Positions 13,148 through 34,769 of a stretch of DNA of 53,520 nucleotides are shown here, piece by piece. The DNA lies in the IMG/VR virus record IMGVR_UViG_3300046011_008859, positions 1 through 53,520 of that record; one strand, given 5' to 3'. How positions within the stretch are numbered: the stretch's first letter is position 1; every line of letters starts with the position of its first letter. Position numbers and translations under genes: made by a program. This stretch comes from a virus. The notes below the pieces were generated by a model, which ran no database searches, was not told the origin of the DNA, and worked only from the letters and a program-made list of their open reading frames with translations.

Positions 13148-13954
13148 TTACTGAGTGAATTGGCCCTCGGCCATGGCTCGGCCAAGTTCCTGAAGAAGAT
13201 CGGTTCTCTGTTCGCCTCCAAGCACGACGGCCCCCTGAGGAAGCCGACGCCCGGCCATGACCTGTGCGTACATCGCAGGATCTGCCTGTGCCACACGCTG
13301 GAGGTTCAGGTCGATTGCAGCCTGCAAGCTTTCGCGCTGTGCTCGTTCCGCCTCCTGGTTGATGACCTGGCGGCGCTGCGCGTTCCGGAACTCCAGGAAC
13401 GCATCCTCTGCCAGCTTTCCCTCAACCTGCCGAGTCAGACTACGAAACGCTCCAACACCAGCTCCCAAGCCAGCCAGAGCGGCAAGGGCCCTAACTCCGT
13501 ACTTTCGGCCAAGCCTTACGGCCAAGTGAGGAGGGACCGGACCCGAAACAGCGCGAGGATCTTCCGGACCAAGGAGTGGACGAGGATCTGTCGGACCAAG
13601 GATTGTTCGGGGATCCTCAGGACCAAGAACCTCTCGAGGATTCTGAGGACCGAGAAATCGTCTTGGTCTTGGGTCTTCTGGACCGAGGAATCGTCGGGGA
13701 TCCTCAGGACCAATGGACAAATAGCGCGGATCTTCCGGACCAGAAATGCGTCTTACTTTTTCTTCCGGACCAGAAATGCGGATTACGTCGTCAGTAAGGG
13801 GAATTTCTACCGGCGACCGCTCAGACCGGGTCGGCGCTTCAGGACTCTTCTTCTTCCTACTTCTCTTCTTAGAAGAGGAAGAAGACCTGGTACTGCCGGA
13901 AGTAGCAGCCATAACGCCCTTGAGGACCTTGCTCTGAACGGGCTTCTTAGCCAC
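13148..13954 (-). CDS. Virion-operon protein with tandem GPEDPR repeats (268 aa)
   Basis: Three parts are visible. Residues 1-50 are basic and Ser-rich (SSSSSKKRSRKKK). Residues 60-140 hold about eight imperfect 9-residue repeats of the form LGPEDPRxx. Residues about 154-173 are a hydrophobic Gly/Ala segment (VRALAALAGLGAGVGAF), followed by a helical Gln-rich C-terminus. I do not recognise the family. A disordered repeat linker between a basic head and a membrane-prone segment would suit an internal, ejected protein. The start is GTG with GGAGG 6 nt upstream, overlapping the previous gene by 8 nt. Confidence 0.65.
   Translation of the reverse strand: MAKKPVQSKVLKGVMAATSGSTRSSSSSKKRSRKKKSPEAPTRSERSPVEIPLTDDVIRISGPEEKVRRISGPEDPRYLSIGPEDPRRFLGPEDPRPRRFLGPQNPREVLGPEDPRTILGPTDPRPLLGPEDPRAVSGPVPPHLAVRLGRKYGVRALAALAGLGAGVGAFRSLTRQVEGKLAEDAFLEFRNAQRRQVINQEAERAQRESLQAAIDLNLQRVAQADPAMYAQVMAGRRLPQGAVVLGGEQRTDLLQELGRAMAEGQFTQ
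13535..13777 (-). repeat. Tandem 27-nt repeats encoding LGPEDPRxx
   Basis: Codons 60-140 of the gene above read as successive variants: ISGPEEKVRR, ISGPEDPRYL, SIGPEDPRRF, LGPEDPRPRRF, LGPQNPREV, LGPEDPRTI, LGPTDPRPL, LGPEDPRAV, SGPVPPHL. Unit length is mostly 9 residues (27 nt). The DNA units have diverged, so this is not a very recent expansion. Confidence 0.85.
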
Positions 13955-22784: not shown

Positions 22785-23566
22785 CAGCAGCTTCCGTCGA
22801 TGCGGTTCGGCGCGCTGAACCAATACGTCGTGCTTCCGGTCACCTGCTCCGTGTACTCCATGCGAACCCAAGCATTCACCGGAACCGACTTTACGAAGAA
22901 GTTCGTGCCTGCCACCCTGTCCCCCGTTCCTGACTGAACCGTGTACCCATATGCGCTGGTGCTTGAATTGCCGCGTTCAAGGAGGTTGAACGCAGTCACG
23001 GGGCTTCCGGAAACCAATCCGTTGTCATATGGCTGGACGGTATACGTCCACTTCGCAAGGCTTGAATCCTTCTGGGCTGCGGTGATCTGCCCGTACACCA
23101 GCGTCGAACCGCCAGTCCCCCCACCTGCCGCGTAGTTGACGATCGCGGTCCCTGCATCCTCGGTCACGCTCACCAGTCCGGTACCCGTGAACCGTACCGT
23201 GTCGATGTTCGCGTAAGTGGCCGGCTCTCCTCCCCCATCCAAGTCCGTCTCGACCGTGATCGTCGTCCCTGCCCCTCCAGGTCCTCCAACCGGGATGGTG
23301 GGGAACGTGATCGGCGGGAACACGATCGGCGGAAAAATCCCGCTCCCATCCGGCCCGCCCGTGATCGAAATGCCGGGCAGCGTGATCGTCGTGCCGGGCA
23401 ACGGCGGAATTCCGATCGGAGGGAACGTCAGGTCGCTGTACCCGCTCGGGCGGTTGAGCGATGGGATCATCGCACTCCCATCTCCTCCACGTTCCATCAA
23501 GCCGGGGAAACGACGGGCAACTTGCCAGCGCGTGGTCCGGAAGTCGTTGTCGTCTCCGAGGGGCAT
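22784..23566 (-). CDS. Pro/Gly-rich tail protein (260 aa)
   Basis: Residues about 45-105 are a Pro/Gly/Ile-rich repeat-like stretch (FPPIGIPPLPGTTITLPGIS and SGIFPPIVFPPITFPTIPVG) that would form an extended rod. The C-terminal half is a beta-rich domain (VRFTGTGLVSVTEDAGTAIV, then WVRMEYTEQVTGSTTYWF) as in fibre and tail spike parts. It lies directly after the adaptor, overlapping its stop (TGATG) with GGAGG upstream. A tail fibre or appendage bound at the tail is the best guess. Confidence 0.6.
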   Translation of the reverse strand: MPLGDDNDFRTTRWQVARRFPGLMERGGDGSAMIPSLNRPSGYSDLTFPPIGIPPLPGTTITLPGISITGGPDGSGIFPPIVFPPITFPTIPVGGPGGAGTTITVETDLDGGGEPATYANIDTVRFTGTGLVSVTEDAGTAIVNYAAGGGTGGSTLVYGQITAAQKDSSLAKWTYTVQPYDNGLVSGSPVTAFNLLERGNSSTSAYGYTVQSGTGDRVAGTNFFVKSVPVNAWVRMEYTEQVTGSTTYWFSAPNRIDGSC

Positions 23567-24504
23567 CAGATCCTCCAGGTCTGGCCGAGCTGGTTGTCCA
23601 CCGTGTCCTTCTCGAAGTGCTTCGGCGTCCGCATCTGGATGTTGCTGTAGTGATCCATCAGCGTCTTCATCGCATCGCGGTACTGCGCCTGGATCATCCC
23701 GAAGTGCTCGCCGGTGGTCTTTCTGTACCCAGCCAGCTTCATCGCGCCCGCCGCAGCAAGCGCTTCGTACAGCGGTTCGCTTCCCTCCGGCGCGATCTCA
23801 AGGGCCGTCAGGTTTCCGGCGGCGTTGTGAACGAACGGTCGGCGGAAAGTAGCAATCCACTGCCCGGCAACCGTACCCGGATTCCACGAAGCAATCATCC
23901 TCTCCTCGATGACCCCGGTGTTTGCGGTTGGAAGCAGCCTGAGCATCTGCCCGACATACGCACTTGGCCTGCGATCGACGGACCCCACCAGCCCTGTCAG
24001 CGTGCCGAGCGTGAAAGTCACCTGGTCCTTGTTCCCGTTCAGCACGGCGCTTGTGCCTGCGCTCTGGCAGTAGAACGCCTGGTAGTCGCCGCTCGGCGTG
24101 TACCACAGTTCCAGCTCCGCGTAGTCCTCGGAAGGGTACGGAAGGAACGTGATCATGTTTCCCTCCACCTGCCAGTTCGGTCCCCGCAGGTTGTACATGT
24201 TGCGGGGCAGGGCTTCCTGGATGACCTCGCCGTTCTCCTGCAGGATGCACAGACGCCACACCTCGCCCACGCACGGGGGAAGCTGGTAGTGCTGCTGGTT
24301 CTTGGTGATCGGGAAGCTGAGCCGCTGCAGCACCGGGCTGGTCGAGCTGTTGTTCACCCGGCTCATGATGCTTGCGAACGCAGGCTGCACCACGTGCCGG
24401 ATGATGTAGTCGTCGCTGTACTTGGCCTCCATGTCGGGATCATCGAGGAACCCACGGATGCGCTCGACCACCGTCTTCAGGACACTGTTGCTTGAGTCAG
24501 CCAT
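23566..24504 (-). CDS. Adaptor / tail tubular A-like protein (312 aa)
   Basis: Begins MADSSNSVLKTVVERIRGFLDDPDME, a helical N-terminus that resembles phage adaptor (head-tail connector) proteins, which carry a helix bundle followed by a beta domain (about residues 60-180 here) and a final helix. Size is somewhat above T7 gp11. It is the first large gene downstream of the capsid and the tiny-gene cassette and is followed by tail proteins, the expected location. AAAGG precedes the ATG. Confidence 0.6.
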   Translation of the reverse strand: MADSSNSVLKTVVERIRGFLDDPDMEAKYSDDYIIRHVVQPAFASIMSRVNNSSTSPVLQRLSFPITKNQQHYQLPPCVGEVWRLCILQENGEVIQEALPRNMYNLRGPNWQVEGNMITFLPYPSEDYAELELWYTPSGDYQAFYCQSAGTSAVLNGNKDQVTFTLGTLTGLVGSVDRRPSAYVGQMLRLLPTANTGVIEERMIASWNPGTVAGQWIATFRRPFVHNAAGNLTALEIAPEGSEPLYEALAAAGAMKLAGYRKTTGEHFGMIQAQYRDAMKTLMDHYSNIQMRTPKHFEKDTVDNQLGQTWRI

Positions 24505-24505
24505 G

Positions 24506-25057
24506 TCAGCATGCCTTTGCCATTGAGATCAGTTCACTGACCGTGTTCCGGTACTGTTCCTCGGACTCGCTGGGGGCGGTCCACCCCACCTGCCCGTTCT
24601 CGACCTGGTGCGCTGCCTGGTCCATTCCCTTGCTGCGCATGTACTTCACCGCGTTCCTGCGGCTGTACTTGCGGTCATCGAGCATCTGACGCCTGTGCAG
24701 CGACGCCTTCCGGAGCCGTTCCCGCATCGCCGCCACCGTCTCCTCGACTGGCTTGCACCGTGCGATCAACGCCTCCCCCACCAACCTGCCGGAAGCAGGC
24801 ATGTCCGGCGGAACCGGCATCGACTCCAGCTCCAGCGCAACGGGAGTGTCGGTCTTCGTCGGCGGATAGATCCACTTCGCAAGCACCCACGTCCCGGCTT
24901 TGCGGTGGTGGTACACGAACAGGTCATGGATGCCAGTCAACTTGCGGGCGTACCGAATCCACTCGCCGTCCGGGCAGACCTCGTGCTCCTCGCCGATGGC
25001 AAGTCCTGCACAAGCCGCTTCCCATTTAGGGTCGAACGTGATTTCCATTTCGCTCAA
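24506..25057 (-). CDS. Hypothetical virion-operon protein (183 aa)
   Basis: Unknown family. The N-terminal part (EITFDPKWEAACAGLAIGEE to about residue 75, with IHDLFVYHHRKAGTWVLAKW) is a compact strand-rich domain; from about 100 it is helical and basic (RERLRKASLHRRQMLDDRKY). I chose the TTG at 25057 because AGGAGG lies 6 nt upstream and TTGA overlaps the preceding stop; the ATG two codons later (25048) is the alternative. Position before the adaptor suggests a head-tail junction or head-completion protein. Confidence 0.6.
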   Translation of the reverse strand: MSEMEITFDPKWEAACAGLAIGEEHEVCPDGEWIRYARKLTGIHDLFVYHHRKAGTWVLAKWIYPPTKTDTPVALELESMPVPPDMPASGRLVGEALIARCKPVEETVAAMRERLRKASLHRRQMLDDRKYSRRNAVKYMRSKGMDQAAHQVENGQVGWTAPSESEEQYRNTVSELISMAKAC

Positions 25058-25308
25058 TCGAAACCTCCTCGCTTGCGGGACTCCCTGATCTTCGACCGGA
25101 ACTCGCCGAGCGTCATGCCGTCCGGCGGCCAAGTTCCGAACTTCCTCTTGTAGAACCCACGCTCACCCTCCGTCAGCTTCCTGCCCCTGTCCATCCCAGC
25201 CGGCTTGGACTTTGGCCTCGGCAACGGACGAAACGAAGGAGTGTCCGGAATCTTCTCCGGAGCCTTCTCCATCATCCGTGCGATCCGTGCGCGATAGCCT
25301 TCATTCAT
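25054..25308 (-). CDS. Small basic protein of the tiny-gene cassette (84 aa)
   Basis: A Lys/Arg/Pro-rich small protein (RARIARMMEKAPEKIPDTPS, then GRKLTEGERGFYKRKFG). ATG 25308 is preceded by GAAGAAGCG; an upstream in-frame extension would cross a GC-rich hairpin and is rejected. No family recognised. It is the last of six tiny genes between capsid and head-tail genes. Confidence 0.55.
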   Translation of the reverse strand: MNEGYRARIARMMEKAPEKIPDTPSFRPLPRPKSKPAGMDRGRKLTEGERGFYKRKFGTWPPDGMTLGEFRSKIRESRKRGGFD

Positions 25309-25345
25309 CGCTTCTTCGCCATGACTCAATCCTACCCACGAAATC

Positions 25346-25369
25346 GGGGCCGGCCCTTCGACCGGCCCC
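25346..25369 (-). terminator. GC-rich hairpin inside the virion operon
   Basis: Arms GGGGCCGG and CCGGCCCC (25346-25353, 25362-25369) close an 8-nt loop in the 95-nt gap between two tiny genes. There is no T-run downstream on the minus strand, so it may be a pause, attenuator or RNA-processing hairpin rather than a full terminator. Nothing else is seen in that gap. Confidence 0.45.
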
Positions 25370-25403
25370 TGCGGGAGTCCCTGCCCGCCCACCCCTCAGG
25401 TGG

Positions 25404-25550
25404 TCAGTAGCCCTTGGTCTTCCCGAAGGTGTTGAGCTTTCCGCCCTTCACCCTCACCTTCCTCGGCTTCAACGCGCCGCTGGTCATTCCCTTCGGCTTG
25501 ACCTTGCGGCGCACGCGCTTCTTTAACGCGGCGATCGGGTTCGGCCCCAT
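25404..25550 (-). CDS. Tiny basic protein (48 aa)
   Basis: The sequence starts MGPNPIAALKKRVRRKVKPK and ends NTFGKTKGY; about one third of residues are Lys or Arg. A strong ribosome site AAAGGAGG lies 9 nt before the ATG. The composition suggests nucleic-acid binding or packaging with DNA in the head, but no family is recognised. Confidence 0.6.
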   Translation of the reverse strand: MGPNPIAALKKRVRRKVKPKGMTSGALKPRKVRVKGGKLNTFGKTKGY

Positions 25551-25551
25551 G

Positions 25552-25623
25552 TCAGCATCCTCCTTTGCAGTTGCACTTGCTCATGCCACACTTCTTGCAG
25601 CCCTTGACTTTGATCTTCTTCAT
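25552..25623 (-). CDS. Cys-rich micro-protein (23 aa)
   Basis: MKKIKVKGCKKCGMSKCNCK plus GGC: five Cys in 15 residues, with CxxC and CxC spacing, plus many Lys. The ATG overlaps the stop of the 65-residue gene (ATGA), the same coupling style as its neighbours, and its stop is followed at once by the next ATG. Small size makes translation uncertain. If made, it would be a minimal metal-binding knuckle. Confidence 0.45.
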   Translation of the reverse strand: MKKIKVKGCKKCGMSKCNCKGGC

Positions 25624-25817
25624 CGGATTCCGTGCTTGTAAAGAGGGGGCAAACCGAGATCCTTGTGGGGAGAGCGAGTGGGTGCCCTTGGTCCCTTTCG
25701 CTTTTTGCCTGGAACTCCGGGAGCTTCGATGCTTCCGGGATTGACCTTGTTTCTCATGCTTGACCGGCCGATCTGGCTGGCCATGTTCCTGAATCCGTTC
25801 AACGGGTTTGGCGACAT
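25620..25817 (-). CDS. Tiny basic protein (65 aa)
   Basis: Starts MSPNPLNGFRNMASQIGRSS and continues with a Lys/Arg/Pro-rich half (PGKKRKGPRAPTRSPHKD). ATG overlaps the stop of the upstream gene (TGATG). No domain recognised; disordered and basic. Confidence 0.55.
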   Translation of the reverse strand: MSPNPLNGFRNMASQIGRSSMRNKVNPGSIEAPGVPGKKRKGPRAPTRSPHKDLGLPPLYKHGIR

Positions 25818-25954
25818 CACTTCCAACCTTTCTTCATCTTTGCGTACTGGCTCGGATCCACCGTGGACTCGCTCTTCGGACGGCTGATCCCAAGCCGCCT
25901 TCGCTTGTTGATGTTCCCCACCAAGCTGTTCTTGACCTTCACGCGCTTTGCCAT
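25817..25954 (-). CDS. Tiny basic protein (45 aa)
   Basis: Starts MAKRVKVKNSLVGNINKRRR; strongly basic. Its ATG overlaps the upstream stop (TGATG) and its stop overlaps the next start. The opening MAKxxxxxK is shared loosely with the 80-residue gene upstream (MAKKRFNFKAK), hinting at duplication. Function unknown. Confidence 0.55.
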   Translation of the reverse strand: MAKRVKVKNSLVGNINKRRRLGISRPKSESTVDPSQYAKMKKGWK

Positions 25955-26196
25955 CAGCAGTTCCAAGCCCTTCGTGCTTTGCGGAGCCGGCTGTTCGGAT
26001 CCCCTGCGGCCTTGGGCCACATCTTCATCTGGCCGGCGGAACGCGCGCAGAACGAATCGCGACGCGAACCGCCTTCAGGCTGCGGAGGCTTCAGGTTGCT
26101 TCCGGTGGCACGATTGTGCGCACGTCTGCCCAGCTCGCTCAGTCCGCCGAGCGGGTTCTTGTGCTTGGCCTTGAAGTTGAAGCGCTTCTTTGCCAC
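25954..26196 (-). CDS. Small basic protein (80 aa)
   Basis: Starts at GTG as MAKKRFNFKAKHKNPLGGLS; basic along its whole length. No clear Shine-Dalgarno precedes it, and a terminator-like hairpin separates it from the capsid gene. It is the first member of the tiny-gene cassette. Function unknown; possibly a head-completion or DNA-condensing protein. Confidence 0.5.
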   Translation of the reverse strand: MAKKRFNFKAKHKNPLGGLSELGRRAHNRATGSNLKPPQPEGGSRRDSFCARSAGQMKMWPKAAGDPNSRLRKARRAWNC

Positions 26197-26265: not shown

Positions 26266-27771
26266 TCACTCGCCGTACTGACGGTCCTCGGCGACACCGG
26301 TCAGCTTCATGCCGGCCGGCTGATCCGGGACGAGCTGCATGCGCAGCATGCCCGGCATCTGAGCGCCTTCCGTCAGGAGGCTGTTGCCACCGCCGCTTCC
26401 CGTCCGGGTGATCGGCACCTTGACGCTGGAGTAGCCCAGCGCCGGGGCGACGAACTCGAAGGGGATGAAGGACTCGGCCTTGTCGAACTTCTGCGTGCCC
26501 TTCGGCGACGGCGGAACGTACTTCTTCCAGTTCGCGCCACCCTTGCGGAGGCCGTACACGGTGCCCGACTCGATGTAGTTCGAGGTGTAACCCGCGTACG
26601 TACGACCGTCGAAGGTGAACTTGAAGCCCTCCTGGCTGCCCTCGTTGGTGAGGGACGACAGGCGGTTGGTGCGATCGATCTGGTACTGACCGATCTTCTG
26701 GGCCTCGTAGTTCAGCCACACGCCATCGCTGGCGATGAGGCAGTCCATGTACTGGCCGTACTTCTCCTTCGCACGGTGGAACCCGCGCAGGTACTGACGG
26801 AGCTTGTGCTCAGTCAGGGTGCCGACGCTGTTCTTGAAGAACGACTTGAACTCCGGGTGGACGTCCACGTCGATTCGGTTGTTGTCGTCCGAATCGCTGC
26901 CGAGGAGGTAGCCGCTGTTCTTCAGCCAGCTGTTGATCCCGGCGATCCCGTAGCCCTTGCTGTTCGCGAAGGTCACGATGTCGTTGTTGATGATACCCGT
27001 GTCGTCCTTGCCGACAACGGTGATCGTCACGAGGTTCTCGACCTCATCGACCGCAGAAACGTACGCGCTTTTACGAGTGCCAGACGTCTCGTTCCGGCGG
27101 GTGGCACCGTTGGACGTGTAGATGTCCACGCGCATGCCGACCGCGTAACGGTCGATGTTGTTCTGGAGGGGGTTGAACGAGAAGACGCTGTTGCCGCCAG
27201 CCACGTCGATCGTGCCGCGATTGGTGATGGAACCGAGCGAGTAATTGGTGTTGTCGCTCATGTACCAGTAGTTGCACAGCGTGTGCGCGATCAGTCGGGC
27301 GTGACCCTCGAGCTTGGGCGCAAGGATCTCGCCGATGAACGCCGGGGTCGCCTCGGCCTGCATCTCACCCAGGGTGACGAGCAGGTTGGAAACCATGGCC
27401 TTCATGCCGATGCCCAGACGGTACGGACGGGCCATCGCACCATCCGAGGGATCAGGCCAAGTCTGGCTGAGGCTCTGGGTCTGGAGCTTGCTGCCCACGT
27501 TCGTCACGCCGCTGCTGTCACCGTACAGGGTGAACTCGGTGTTGGCGTTCATCTCGAGCACGCCAGCCATCGAGCCCATGTAGATCTTGAGGATCTTCAT
27601 GTCGCGGCCGATGAGGCTGGCCTGACCGACGCCCTGGCTGGTCACGGTGGTGTCACGCCATGCGGGGTCCATGGCGGGAAGGAAGACTTCGATGTTCTTG
27701 TTCAGGATCTCCTGGATCCGGTTGCTCTGCTGCGAAAACAGCGAGTTGGCTGGTGCAAACTGTGCTGGCAC
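26266..27771 (-). CDS. Major capsid protein (501 aa)
   Basis: Gene order portal, scaffold, then this protein, plus a terminator directly behind, marks it as the major capsid protein. The sequence has the alternation of helices and strands typical for HK97-fold capsids: a long N-terminal arm (QSNRIQEILNKNIEVFLPAM), a helix near residues 120-160, and beta segments to the end. The start is GTG with GGAG 8 nt upstream. No protease-cleaved delta-domain is evident, in keeping with a separate scaffold. Assigned by position and composition; no signature motif exists for this family. Confidence 0.8.
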   Translation of the reverse strand: MPAQFAPANSLFSQQSNRIQEILNKNIEVFLPAMDPAWRDTTVTSQGVGQASLIGRDMKILKIYMGSMAGVLEMNANTEFTLYGDSSGVTNVGSKLQTQSLSQTWPDPSDGAMARPYRLGIGMKAMVSNLLVTLGEMQAEATPAFIGEILAPKLEGHARLIAHTLCNYWYMSDNTNYSLGSITNRGTIDVAGGNSVFSFNPLQNNIDRYAVGMRVDIYTSNGATRRNETSGTRKSAYVSAVDEVENLVTITVVGKDDTGIINNDIVTFANSKGYGIAGINSWLKNSGYLLGSDSDDNNRIDVDVHPEFKSFFKNSVGTLTEHKLRQYLRGFHRAKEKYGQYMDCLIASDGVWLNYEAQKIGQYQIDRTNRLSSLTNEGSQEGFKFTFDGRTYAGYTSNYIESGTVYGLRKGGANWKKYVPPSPKGTQKFDKAESFIPFEFVAPALGYSSVKVPITRTGSGGGNSLLTEGAQMPGMLRMQLVPDQPAGMKLTGVAEDRQYGE

Positions 27772-33206: not shown

Positions 33207-33528
33207 GGTTCGTTGTTTCTCGCAGGGACTGGACGAGTTTCGCCGACGCGCTGATCTTAACGACCCGGTCGCCTTCCTGGTGCGTGATCTCCGCGTTCTG
33301 GCTCTGGATGATGCCGTTGATCTCGGCCGTCTCCCGCACCACGCCACGGAGCTGCTTCATCGCAGCCATCGCAACCTTGGGGTCGGAGTCCCTGCTGAAC
33401 TCGACCAGCCGCTCGACTTCCTCCCGTACCTCCCAGTTGCTCGACCGCAGCGCAAGGGCAACGCCGTCAAGCCCGAAGTAGGCGCGGATCGTGTCCTCGC
33501 CGGGAACCGCTCGGTCTACCTGCTTCAA
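33082..33528 (-). CDS. Hypothetical protein upstream of terminase, possible small terminase (148 aa)
   Basis: Helical, acidic-basic protein with residues about 30-65 (SNWEVREEVERLVEFSRDSD, then KVAMAAMKQLRGVVRETAEI) like a helix-turn-helix or oligomerising helices. It starts at TTG with GGAGG 6 nt upstream, TTGA overlapping the preceding stop. Its C-terminus (PARDSAQAAHPAPESGVRAD) is Pro/Ala-rich and overlaps the next gene. Candidate small terminase subunit by position only. Confidence 0.5.
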   Translation of the reverse strand: MKQVDRAVPGEDTIRAYFGLDGVALALRSSNWEVREEVERLVEFSRDSDPKVAMAAMKQLRGVVRETAEINGIIQSQNAEITHQEGDRVVKISASAKLVQSLRETTNHVKVPDSLPFAAQFLPARDSAQAAHPAPESGVRADQEPSAP

Positions 33529-34769
33529 TCAAGGCCTCCGGCAAGCGCAGACGGATCCCACTCCATCCGCATCTTCTCCAGTGCCTTCCGGCCACGGCGG
33601 GTCTGGACCGTCTTCTCGAGATCACGCCAGCGGGACAGGGTTGCCTTCATTTGGCGGCCGGACGAGATGCGCGCACGCTCGGCCTTCCGCTTCTGGATGG
33701 GACCCAGCTTCTGGGTCTTGATCGCTTCCTTGCCGGCCGGGAGGTTCGATCCGTAGTCCTCGAGGAACCGCTGGTAGTGGGGGTACATCTTCGCGATGGC
33801 CAGGCGGTCGTACGCATCTTCCGGGAGGTCCGCGTACTTGGCGCGTGCCTTCCCCACCAGCTTCTCGAACCGCTTCCGCTCCGGACGGGTCATGCCCTCC
33901 CGGAGCGAGAAGAACATCTGCTTCTCCTCGGCGACGAGTCGGCGGTCGGACACCATCTGCTTGCGCGGGGCCACGTCCCTCGGGATCGCCATGCTCACGT
34001 CCGAACGCTCGCCGGACTTGGGCGCGTAGAAACCTGAATCAGCGTACGAACGCCAGGCGGTCAGCGCGCCCTTGCCGGATTCCTTGATCTTCATGCGGGG
34101 CATGGATCCCCGGAACACAACATCTCCGGCTTCTTCTGCCTTCTTGACCCGACCGACGTCCTTCTCGAGCTCCTTGAGCACGTCCTTCTTGCGGATGTCG
34201 GCAGGCGAGCGACCGCTCCTCATGCGCGAGCGAAGGGCGGCCATGACGTACTTCTTGCCTTCGGGCATCGCGAAGAACTCGGAGATCGGTCGCTGCAGCT
34301 CCGGCATGATCGAGGACTCGAAGAACTCGCCGCGTGCCGTGAGTCGCTGCTTCGTCCTTGCGGACTTCAACTGGGCCTTGCTCTCCGGATCGGTTGCGCC
34401 TTCCTTGAAGTAGCGCTCGTCCAGAGGCTTGGTTCCCGTGGACACCATCGTGCCCTGGGAAACGCCCTCGATGCGGTCCTGCGCGTAGGTCACGAGGGTC
34501 GGCATGAGCTTCGCCGCCTGCGGGCGGACCTTGCCCTGCTTGACGGCGGCATCAACCGCAGACTGGATGTTCTTTGCCTTCGACTTCTTGCCCAGAATCC
34601 CCATCACCGCAGCAAGCTCTTGGCCGGTGGGGACCAGGTCCGCCAGCTTCATGCGGGGCTGCATCTCTTCCGCAACCGCTGACATCGAAGGCTGGCTCCT
34701 CGACAGGGCAGGCAATGCCTGGCGTCCCTGCACGAGCGTCAGCTTCCTGATTGGGTTCTTTCTTGCCAT
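33525..34769 (-). CDS. Basic virion-operon protein (414 aa)
   Basis: A Lys/Arg-rich helical protein (KSGERSDVSMAIPRDVAPRK, RPERKRFEKLVGKARAKYAD). No domain recognised. The first about 70 residues overlap the C-terminal end of the gene at 34552-35235 in another frame; the start could be at the internal ATG 34604 instead. A strongly basic internal or DNA-associated virion protein is plausible. Codons LVG at 33852-33861 come from a Chi-like motif. Confidence 0.5.
   Translation of the reverse strand: MARKNPIRKLTLVQGRQALPALSRSQPSMSAVAEEMQPRMKLADLVPTGQELAAVMGILGKKSKAKNIQSAVDAAVKQGKVRPQAAKLMPTLVTYAQDRIEGVSQGTMVSTGTKPLDERYFKEGATDPESKAQLKSARTKQRLTARGEFFESSIMPELQRPISEFFAMPEGKKYVMAALRSRMRSGRSPADIRKKDVLKELEKDVGRVKKAEEAGDVVFRGSMPRMKIKESGKGALTAWRSYADSGFYAPKSGERSDVSMAIPRDVAPRKQMVSDRRLVAEEKQMFFSLREGMTRPERKRFEKLVGKARAKYADLPEDAYDRLAIAKMYPHYQRFLEDYGSNLPAGKEAIKTQKLGPIQKRKAERARISSGRQMKATLSRWRDLEKTVQTRRGRKALEKMRMEWDPSALAGGLD

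What the first reader, a model, noticed from the sequence alone, without database searches (positions are those of the whole stretch)
25054..26196. Cassette of six tiny, overlapping, mostly basic genes after the capsid gene
Between capsid and head-tail genes lie proteins of 80, 45, 65, 23, 48 and 84 aa, several joined by TGATG or ATGA overlaps, all rich in Lys and Arg. They may help condense DNA, bind capsid or modify the host. I know no phage family that has this exact series.
Basis: partly seen in the sequence, partly recalled or inferred. Interest (0 to 1): 0.6.

Follow-up and report, generated by a model that had tools for sequence, protein, structure and literature searches.

The report
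Shuffled basic micro-genes behind phage capsid
Directly behind its capsid gene this uncultured phage carries a row of tiny, real, positively charged genes drawn from a pool that many aquatic phages shuffle next to their head genes; the proteins probably ride inside the virus head on the DNA, but that has not been shown by experiment.

Summary
In detail: six minus-strand genes of 80, 45, 65, 23, 48 and 84 aa, 20-35% Lys+Arg, net +8 to +16, joined by TGATG/TGATG/ATGA. They are real genes. The 80-aa protein is a DUF6321 domain (Pfam 62 bits, cut-off 28.5). The 45-aa protein matches phrog_25774. All six recur at the same place in uncultured relatives, with pN/pS of 0.18-0.70. The cassette is combinatorial: 16 genomes with both flanks show 14 different series, always with DUF6321. 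Other relatives add a DUF5872 protein, a CTG/FGG micro-protein and a predicted Dps-fold protein (DUF5856). The first five genes lie between two strong RNA hairpins. The same modules flank head genes in unrelated T7-like cyanophages and pelagiphages, and are fused in a +86 protein among the head genes of a T4-like cyanophage. A DUF6321 protein was detected in the S-CREM2 virion by mass spectrometry. Best reading: small basic head-internal proteins that bind packaged DNA, functioning like T4 IPI-III (confidence 0.45). Virion location is inferred from one homologue. DNA binding is inferred from charge, fusion and company only. The families are catalogued without function. I found no description of the shuffled capsid-side cassette as a unit.

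The parts
26266..27771 (-). major capsid protein gene (upstream neighbour), 501 aa, named from position and relatives
   Evidence: Lies between the scaffold-like and adaptor-like genes; no PHROG/Pfam match; 33 IMG/VR relatives at 64-95% identity
26216..26249 (-). hairpin behind the capsid stop codon: 15-bp stem, UUCG loop, CCCUUUGCU tail; terminator/attenuator-like
   Evidence: segment -33 kcal/mol, z -4.4; a long hairpin in this place in every relative checked, UUCG-type loop in nearly all, with changed but still paired stems
25954..26196 (-). g1, 80 aa, GTG start, DUF6321 domain; helical C-terminal part predicted
   Evidence: PF19846 E 8.8e-17, 62 bits, cut-off 28.5; phrog_10346 and seven others; pN/pS 0.18; AlphaFold2 mean pLDDT 71, 84-88 over residues 51-80
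25817..25954 (-). g2, 45 aa, phrog_25774
   Evidence: E 3.3e-14; homologues in pelagiphages, roseophages and phage P60; pN/pS 0.28
25620..25817 (-). g3, 65 aa, basic Pro-rich protein with an N-terminal NPL motif
   Evidence: homologues at the same place in 6 of 28 relatives; pN/pS 0.46
25552..25623 (-). g4, 23 aa, MKKIKVKGCKKCGMSKCNCKGGC, five-Cys possible metal-binding micro-protein
   Evidence: 17 of 28 relatives; identical protein in L003 despite 2 silent changes
25404..25550 (-). g5, 48 aa, N-terminal NPI motif, very basic
   Evidence: 16 of 28 relatives; pN/pS 0.70
25346..25369 (-). second hairpin (10-bp GC stem) between g5 and g6, closing the g1-g5 unit
   Evidence: 71-nt segment z -2.6; the surrounding DNA recurs in relatives as spurious 'MGGQGLPQGPVEGPAPLS' frames
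25054..25308 (-). g6, 84 aa, after the second hairpin
   Evidence: 6 of 28 relatives pass the profile search, many others end before it; pN/pS 0.61
24506..25048 (-). g7, 180 aa, unknown, near-neutral charge; flank of the cassette, not part of it
   Evidence: tblastn in all relatives that reach it; no Pfam/PHROG match
23566..24504 (-). head-tail adaptor-like protein, downstream flank
   Evidence: SU10_adaptor 22.8 bits, below the cut-off of 27

Best explanation
The cassette encodes small, basic, head-internal ('cargo') proteins that are made just behind the capsid protein, enter the procapsid and bind and organise the packaged DNA, functioning like T4's internal proteins IPI-III. DUF6321 (g1) is the constant member; the others are exchangeable. 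Transcription from the capsid gene runs through a hairpin that would lower expression, and overlapping stop/start codons would couple translation of g1-g4. Shown: real genes, purifying selection, position, combinatorial turnover, hairpin conservation, fusion of the modules in a cyanophage head-region protein, mass-spectrometric detection of one DUF6321 protein in a virion. Inferred: location inside the head in this phage, DNA binding, regulation by hairpin and coupling, ejection with the DNA.
For: (1) Conserved, selected frames behind the capsid. (2) Same modules next to head genes in other lineages: P-SCSP1u capsid-DUF6321-58 aa basic-tail tube; between scaffold and capsid in HTVC201P, HTVC142P, HTVC021P, P-SCSP2, S-TIP37, S-RIP2, S-SBP1, KBS-P-1A, in some with psbA or hli genes also in between. 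(3) ACG-2014f gp125, 936 aa, net +86, between gp16 and gp17, contains the DUF5872 first-half module (E 9e-14) and DUF6321 (E 8e-23) in one chain. (4) S-CREM2 ORF137 carries DUF6321 (40.8 bits, cut-off 28.5), is the annotated gene at 108049-109521, and is listed in the virion proteome (4 unique peptides, 4.1% coverage; PMC10665884 Table 3). (5) In 15 of 28 relatives a DUF5856 protein with a Dps-like predicted fold (TM 0.61, Foldseek probability 1.00, E 0.07) sits in the same cassette. (6) Precedent: T4 IPs are 8-20 kDa, basic, about 360 copies per head, bind DNA at low salt and vary between T4-like phages (PMC9026906).
Against: No peptide from this phage group exists. The S-CREM2 peptides cover 4.1% of a 490-aa acidic protein and need not come from the DUF6321 part; that paper warns that highly expressed non-virion proteins may co-purify. 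DNA binding is deduced from charge only; the g1 model has no PDB match. Outside these phages DUF6321 is not tied to capsid genes: among 127 neighbours of DUF6321 genes in IMG/VR contigs only one matched a major head family, and in LMM01 it lies among replication genes. No packaging peptide or prohead protease was identified in the window.
Confidence: 0.45

Rival explanations
1. Ejected host-takeover or anti-defence proteins: packaged in or carried with the head, but their job is to act on host enzymes (restriction, nucleoid, RNA polymerase) on entry. The rapid exchange of members would then reflect an arms race.
For: T4 IPI does exactly this as an inhibitor of a type IV restriction enzyme (PMC9026906). 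Members turn over quickly: 14 series in 16 genomes, and pN/pS rises from 0.18 (g1) to 0.70 (g5).
Against: g1 is present in every relative that holds the region, is strongly conserved and spans phages of different hosts, unlike an arms-race factor. No similarity to known inhibitors in Pfam/PHROGs; PADLOC was not searched.
Confidence: 0.2
2. Assembly helpers that are not in the finished virion (co-scaffolds or chaperones of the capsid or portal) and act only during head formation.
For: Place between scaffold and capsid, or capsid and adaptor, genes in several lineages. The P-SCSP1u capsid has no decoration protein although its genome has the DUF6321 gene (PMC10575957), which argues against an outer-shell role.
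Against: DUF6321 protein reported in the S-CREM2 virion. Strong positive charge suits nucleic acid better than a procapsid interior. DUF6321 occurs far from head genes elsewhere.
Confidence: 0.15
3. Intracellular nucleic-acid binders (late mRNA, ribosome or phage nucleoid) whose only link with the capsid is high late expression.
For: Basic, Cys-containing micro-proteins; the g1-g5 unit is bounded by hairpins and so may be expressed separately. In LMM01 DUF6321 stands next to helicase and polymerase genes.
Against: Recurrent placement beside scaffold/capsid genes in phages with no detectable similarity in other head proteins, and the head-region fusion protein.
Confidence: 0.15
4. Chance or spurious reading frames in GC-rich DNA.
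For: Hundreds of spurious frames exist in the same stretch of the relatives (918 frames of 18 aa or more, both strands).
Against: Family matches, pN<pS in nearly all pairs, profile hits only in these frames of the window.
Confidence: 0.02

Closest known systems
DUF6321 proteins (Pfam PF19846) of cyanophages, pelagiphages and Microcystis phages
   Same: g1 is a full-length member: GGL..GR..., SFCAR(M/S)xG..., xxRxWxC end
   Different: here a stand-alone gene at the head of a micro-gene cassette in a phage whose capsid and terminase have no match in 50,697 phage records; in Kyanoviridae examined it is the C-terminus of long proteins
Head-side micro-gene pairs of Autographiviridae cyanophages and pelagiphages (P-SCSP1u, HTVC201P, S-TIP37, P-SCSP2)
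   Same: DUF6321 next to one or more other basic micro-genes, adjacent to scaffold/capsid genes
   Different: their partner is usually the 'GLYANIH..SGEKMRKPG' micro-protein, absent here; usually before the capsid gene rather than after it
T4 internal head proteins IPI-III
   Same: small, basic set that varies between relatives (PMC9026906)
   Different: no sequence relation; T4 IPs carry a cleaved capsid-targeting propeptide, not demonstrated here
Basic virion DNA-binding proteins of chlorovirus PBCV-1 (A278L, A282L and others)
   Same: virion-packaged basic proteins thought to neutralise the genome (PMC3281028)
   Different: large proteins of a eukaryotic virus; no sequence relation shown. 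The same paper states there is no evidence that basic proteins contribute much to neutralising phage DNA
Dps / DUF5856 (in relatives only)
   Same: 15 of 28 relatives have a predicted Dps-fold protein close behind the capsid
   Different: absent from this window

Membership tests
DUF6321 (PF19846) | profile match above Pfam gathering score over the full domain | tested here: met
   g1 62 bits vs 28.5, residues 12-78 on profile 1-72/72
phrog_25774 | profile match over most of the family | tested here: met
   g2 E 3.3e-14, profile 2-37 of 42; no curated cut-off exists
T4-type internal head proteins | small basic proteins, a variable set, encoded among head genes | tested here: met
T4-type internal head proteins | N-terminal capsid-targeting propeptide cleaved by prohead protease | tested here: inconclusive
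   an NP motif lies in the first 22 residues in the majority of listed members in 7 of 13 cassette families against 4 of 50 other predicted window proteins (binomial P 8e-6, chosen after seeing the data); no protease gene or cleavage site identified
T4-type internal head proteins | present inside the virion and bound to DNA | not testable with these tools
   only indirect: DUF6321 protein in S-CREM2 virions
Dps-like DNA protection proteins | ferritin-like four-helix protein in the cassette | tested here: not met
   absent from the window; present in relatives
capsid decoration (cement) proteins | density on the outer capsid surface | not testable with these tools
   against by homology: P-SCSP1u has the DUF6321 gene but no decoration protein on its capsid (PMC10575957)

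The most novel reading that the evidence does not exclude
Aquatic tailed phages share a pool of unrelated basic micro-proteins (DUF6321, DUF5872, the g2, g4 and g5 types, and a Dps-fold protein) that are loaded into the head through a short shared N-terminal '(KK-KVKxK)NP[L/I]' peptide, as cargo peptides load encapsulins, and form a protein-organised, chromatin-like phage genome. The head-side cassette would be a shuffling site at which cargo sets are exchanged.
Probability: 0.15. Interest if true: 0.85.

Novelty: new variant of a known kind. Interest (0 to 1): 0.55.

Why it matters
Phage DNA is generally thought to be neutralised by cations and polyamines rather than proteins (PMC3281028). 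A recurring, selected, exchangeable set of basic micro-genes at the capsid locus, shared as modules by T7-like, T4-like and uncultured phages, would be an exception that can be tested in cultured cyanophages and pelagiphages. It also gives a concrete lead on the function of DUF6321, seen in about 540 sequenced phage records, and of DUF5872. Both are Pfam families without assigned function, and the text search found no paper on DUF6321 and one, without function, on DUF5872.

Tried and rejected
Chance frames: rejected by homology and pN/pS. Solved-structure relatives of g1: none by sequence or by fold. Capsid adjacency as a general rule for DUF6321: not supported by the survey of 80 IMG/VR loci (74 stand-alone; neighbours mostly unknown; one major head protein among 127); those neighbours were chosen by a mechanical ORF rule, so some may be spurious frames. 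FSNWRD repeats of ACG-2014f gp125 as a general head-targeting signal: not found in its other head-region proteins that I translated. Host link through a bacterial genome contig: none. Capsid, terminase and g7 relatives among sequenced phages: none. Link of the CRP-212 protein to other giant-virus families: only sub-threshold DUF5754. Independent virion mass-spectrometry data for S-CREM1 and S-SCSM1: tables only in supplements, not readable; MaMV-DH01 has none.

Full report
What is there. On the minus strand, behind the capsid gene (26266-27771), lie six frames of 80, 45, 65, 23, 48 and 84 aa, exactly as reported. The first three junctions are TGATG, TGATG and ATGA, and the fourth has one base between stop and start. 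All six are basic (net +8 to +16). The capsid stop codon is followed by a 15-bp hairpin with a UUCG loop. A second GC-rich hairpin lies between gene 5 and gene 6. A long hairpin follows the capsid stop in every relative checked, nearly always with a UUCG-type loop and with stems whose sequence differs but still pairs. Genes 1-5 therefore look like one small unit between two terminators or attenuators. From general knowledge, T7 too has a terminator directly behind its capsid gene. The promoter/terminator consensus scan did not flag these hairpins, whose tails are poor in T, so the transcriptional role is inferred.

Real genes. Gene 1 is a DUF6321 protein and gene 2 a phrog_25774 protein. A scan of IMG/VR with the capsid gave 33 relatives. 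Profiles of each micro-gene, searched in all frames, hit exactly the six reported frames in the window and nowhere else in it. Pooled pN/pS is 0.18, 0.28, 0.46, 0.47, 0.70 and 0.61 for genes 1-6. Selection is therefore strong on g1 and g2 and weak on g5 and g6. The number of pairs overstates the independent evidence because the sequences are related.

A combinatorial cassette. In 28 relatives with the region, DUF6321 is present in 28, g4 in 17, g5 in 16, DUF5856 in 15, DUF5872 in 13, a CTG/FGG micro-protein in 11, g2 in 8, g3 in 6 and g6 in 6. Counts of the later genes are lower bounds because many contigs end early, and the 28 were counted because they hold DUF6321. Sixteen genomes with both flanks (capsid and g7), the window included, show 14 different series. 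Three contigs carry a chimeric 18-aa frame, MAKDDCYR-INKSLRAWNC. Its second part is 32/34 nucleotides identical to the end of their own DUF6321 gene and its start resembles the DUF5872 gene. The first part is short (14 nt), so recombination inside the cassette is likely rather than proven. DUF5856, often the first gene behind the capsid in relatives, was modelled with confidence (pLDDT 80) and its best fold matches are Dps proteins (TM 0.61, Foldseek probability 1.00, E 0.07). It is absent from the window.

Same modules elsewhere. DUF6321 occurs in 542 of 50,697 phage records, mostly cyanophages and pelagiphages. In T7-like phages whose capsids have no detectable relation to this one, it stands beside head genes with another basic micro-gene. 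In P-SCSP1u the order is capsid, DUF6321, 58-aa basic protein, tail tube. In HTVC201P, HTVC142P, P-SCSP2, S-TIP37, S-RIP2, S-SBP1 and KBS-P-1A it lies between scaffold and capsid, in the Synechococcus phages together with hli and psbA genes. HTVC021P has a g2-type gene in that place. DUF6321 directly followed by g2 also occurs in P60 and the roseophage CRP-212. In CRP-7 and P-SCSP2 the DUF5872 domain is split over two micro-genes. In T4-like ACG-2014f the first-half module of DUF5872, a weaker match to its second half and DUF6321 are joined in one 936-aa, +86 protein encoded between gp16 and gp17. In the T4-like S-CREM2 the DUF6321 protein ORF137 in the same place was detected in purified virions (PMC10665884).

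Limits. DUF6321 is not always near head genes. In the IMG/VR survey its neighbours were mostly of unknown function and only one of 127 matched a major head family. In Microcystis phage LMM01 it stands among replication genes. The S-CREM2 detection rests on 4.1% coverage and may not include the domain. The g1 model is moderate (pLDDT 71) and matches nothing solved.

Shared leader. Many cassette proteins that are otherwise unrelated begin with a Lys-rich stretch and an NP[L/I/A] motif (g1, g2, g3, g5, DUF5856, C18, C26). In 7 of 13 families the majority of listed members have NP in the first 22 residues, against 4 of 50 other predicted window proteins. The motif was noticed before it was tested and members were hand-picked, so P = 8e-6 is indicative only. 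It could be a head-loading peptide, comparable to T4 capsid-targeting sequences or encapsulin cargo peptides (the latter from general knowledge), or a trace of recombination at the 5' ends.

Mechanism. The best-supported reading is a set of small, basic internal head proteins, functioning like T4 IPI-III (basic, 8-20 kDa, about 360 copies, binding DNA at low salt, variable between relatives, one of them an anti-restriction protein; PMC9026906). Head association is supported indirectly. DNA binding and ejection are inferred. An anti-defence role, an assembly-only role and an intracellular nucleic-acid role remain open.

Novelty. The families DUF6321, DUF5872, DUF5856 and phrog_25774 are catalogued without function. 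Text searches found no paper on DUF6321 and none describing such a head-side micro-gene cassette, within an open-access library only. The window belongs to an uncultured lineage whose capsid, terminase and g7 have no match in the phage collection.

Noticed in passing
L004:8494-8550, L005:8494-8550, L006:7907-7963: Chimeric 18-aa frame MAKDDCYR-INKSLRAWNC that joins a start resembling the DUF5872 gene to the last codons of the DUF6321 gene; a likely recombination scar inside the cassette.
   Followed up: partly
L008:7611-8027 and 14 other relatives, directly or shortly behind the capsid gene: DUF5856 protein with a predicted Dps-like four-helix fold encoded between capsid and DUF6321; missing in the window.
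   Followed up: yes
window 33525-34769 (-): 414-aa Lys/Arg-rich protein without PHROG match, encoded near the terminase gene, that starts MARKNPIRKL, the same kind of leader as the cassette proteins.
   Followed up: no
window 13148-13954 (-): 268-aa protein with about eight degenerate repeats of GPEDPR (SGPEEKVRR, SGPEDPRYL, GPEDPRRFL, GPQNPREVL, GPTDPRPLL...).
   Followed up: no
L039:2406-5216 (ACG-2014f gp125): 936-aa, +86 cyanophage protein that strings basic micro-domains together between three FSNWRD/FSSWRD repeats; the repeats were not found in the other head-region proteins translated.
   Followed up: partly
L069:557-4213 and L077:2306-4273: DUF6321 at or near the C-terminus of very long viral proteins (1218 and 655 aa), as in the cyanophage fusions.
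   Followed up: no
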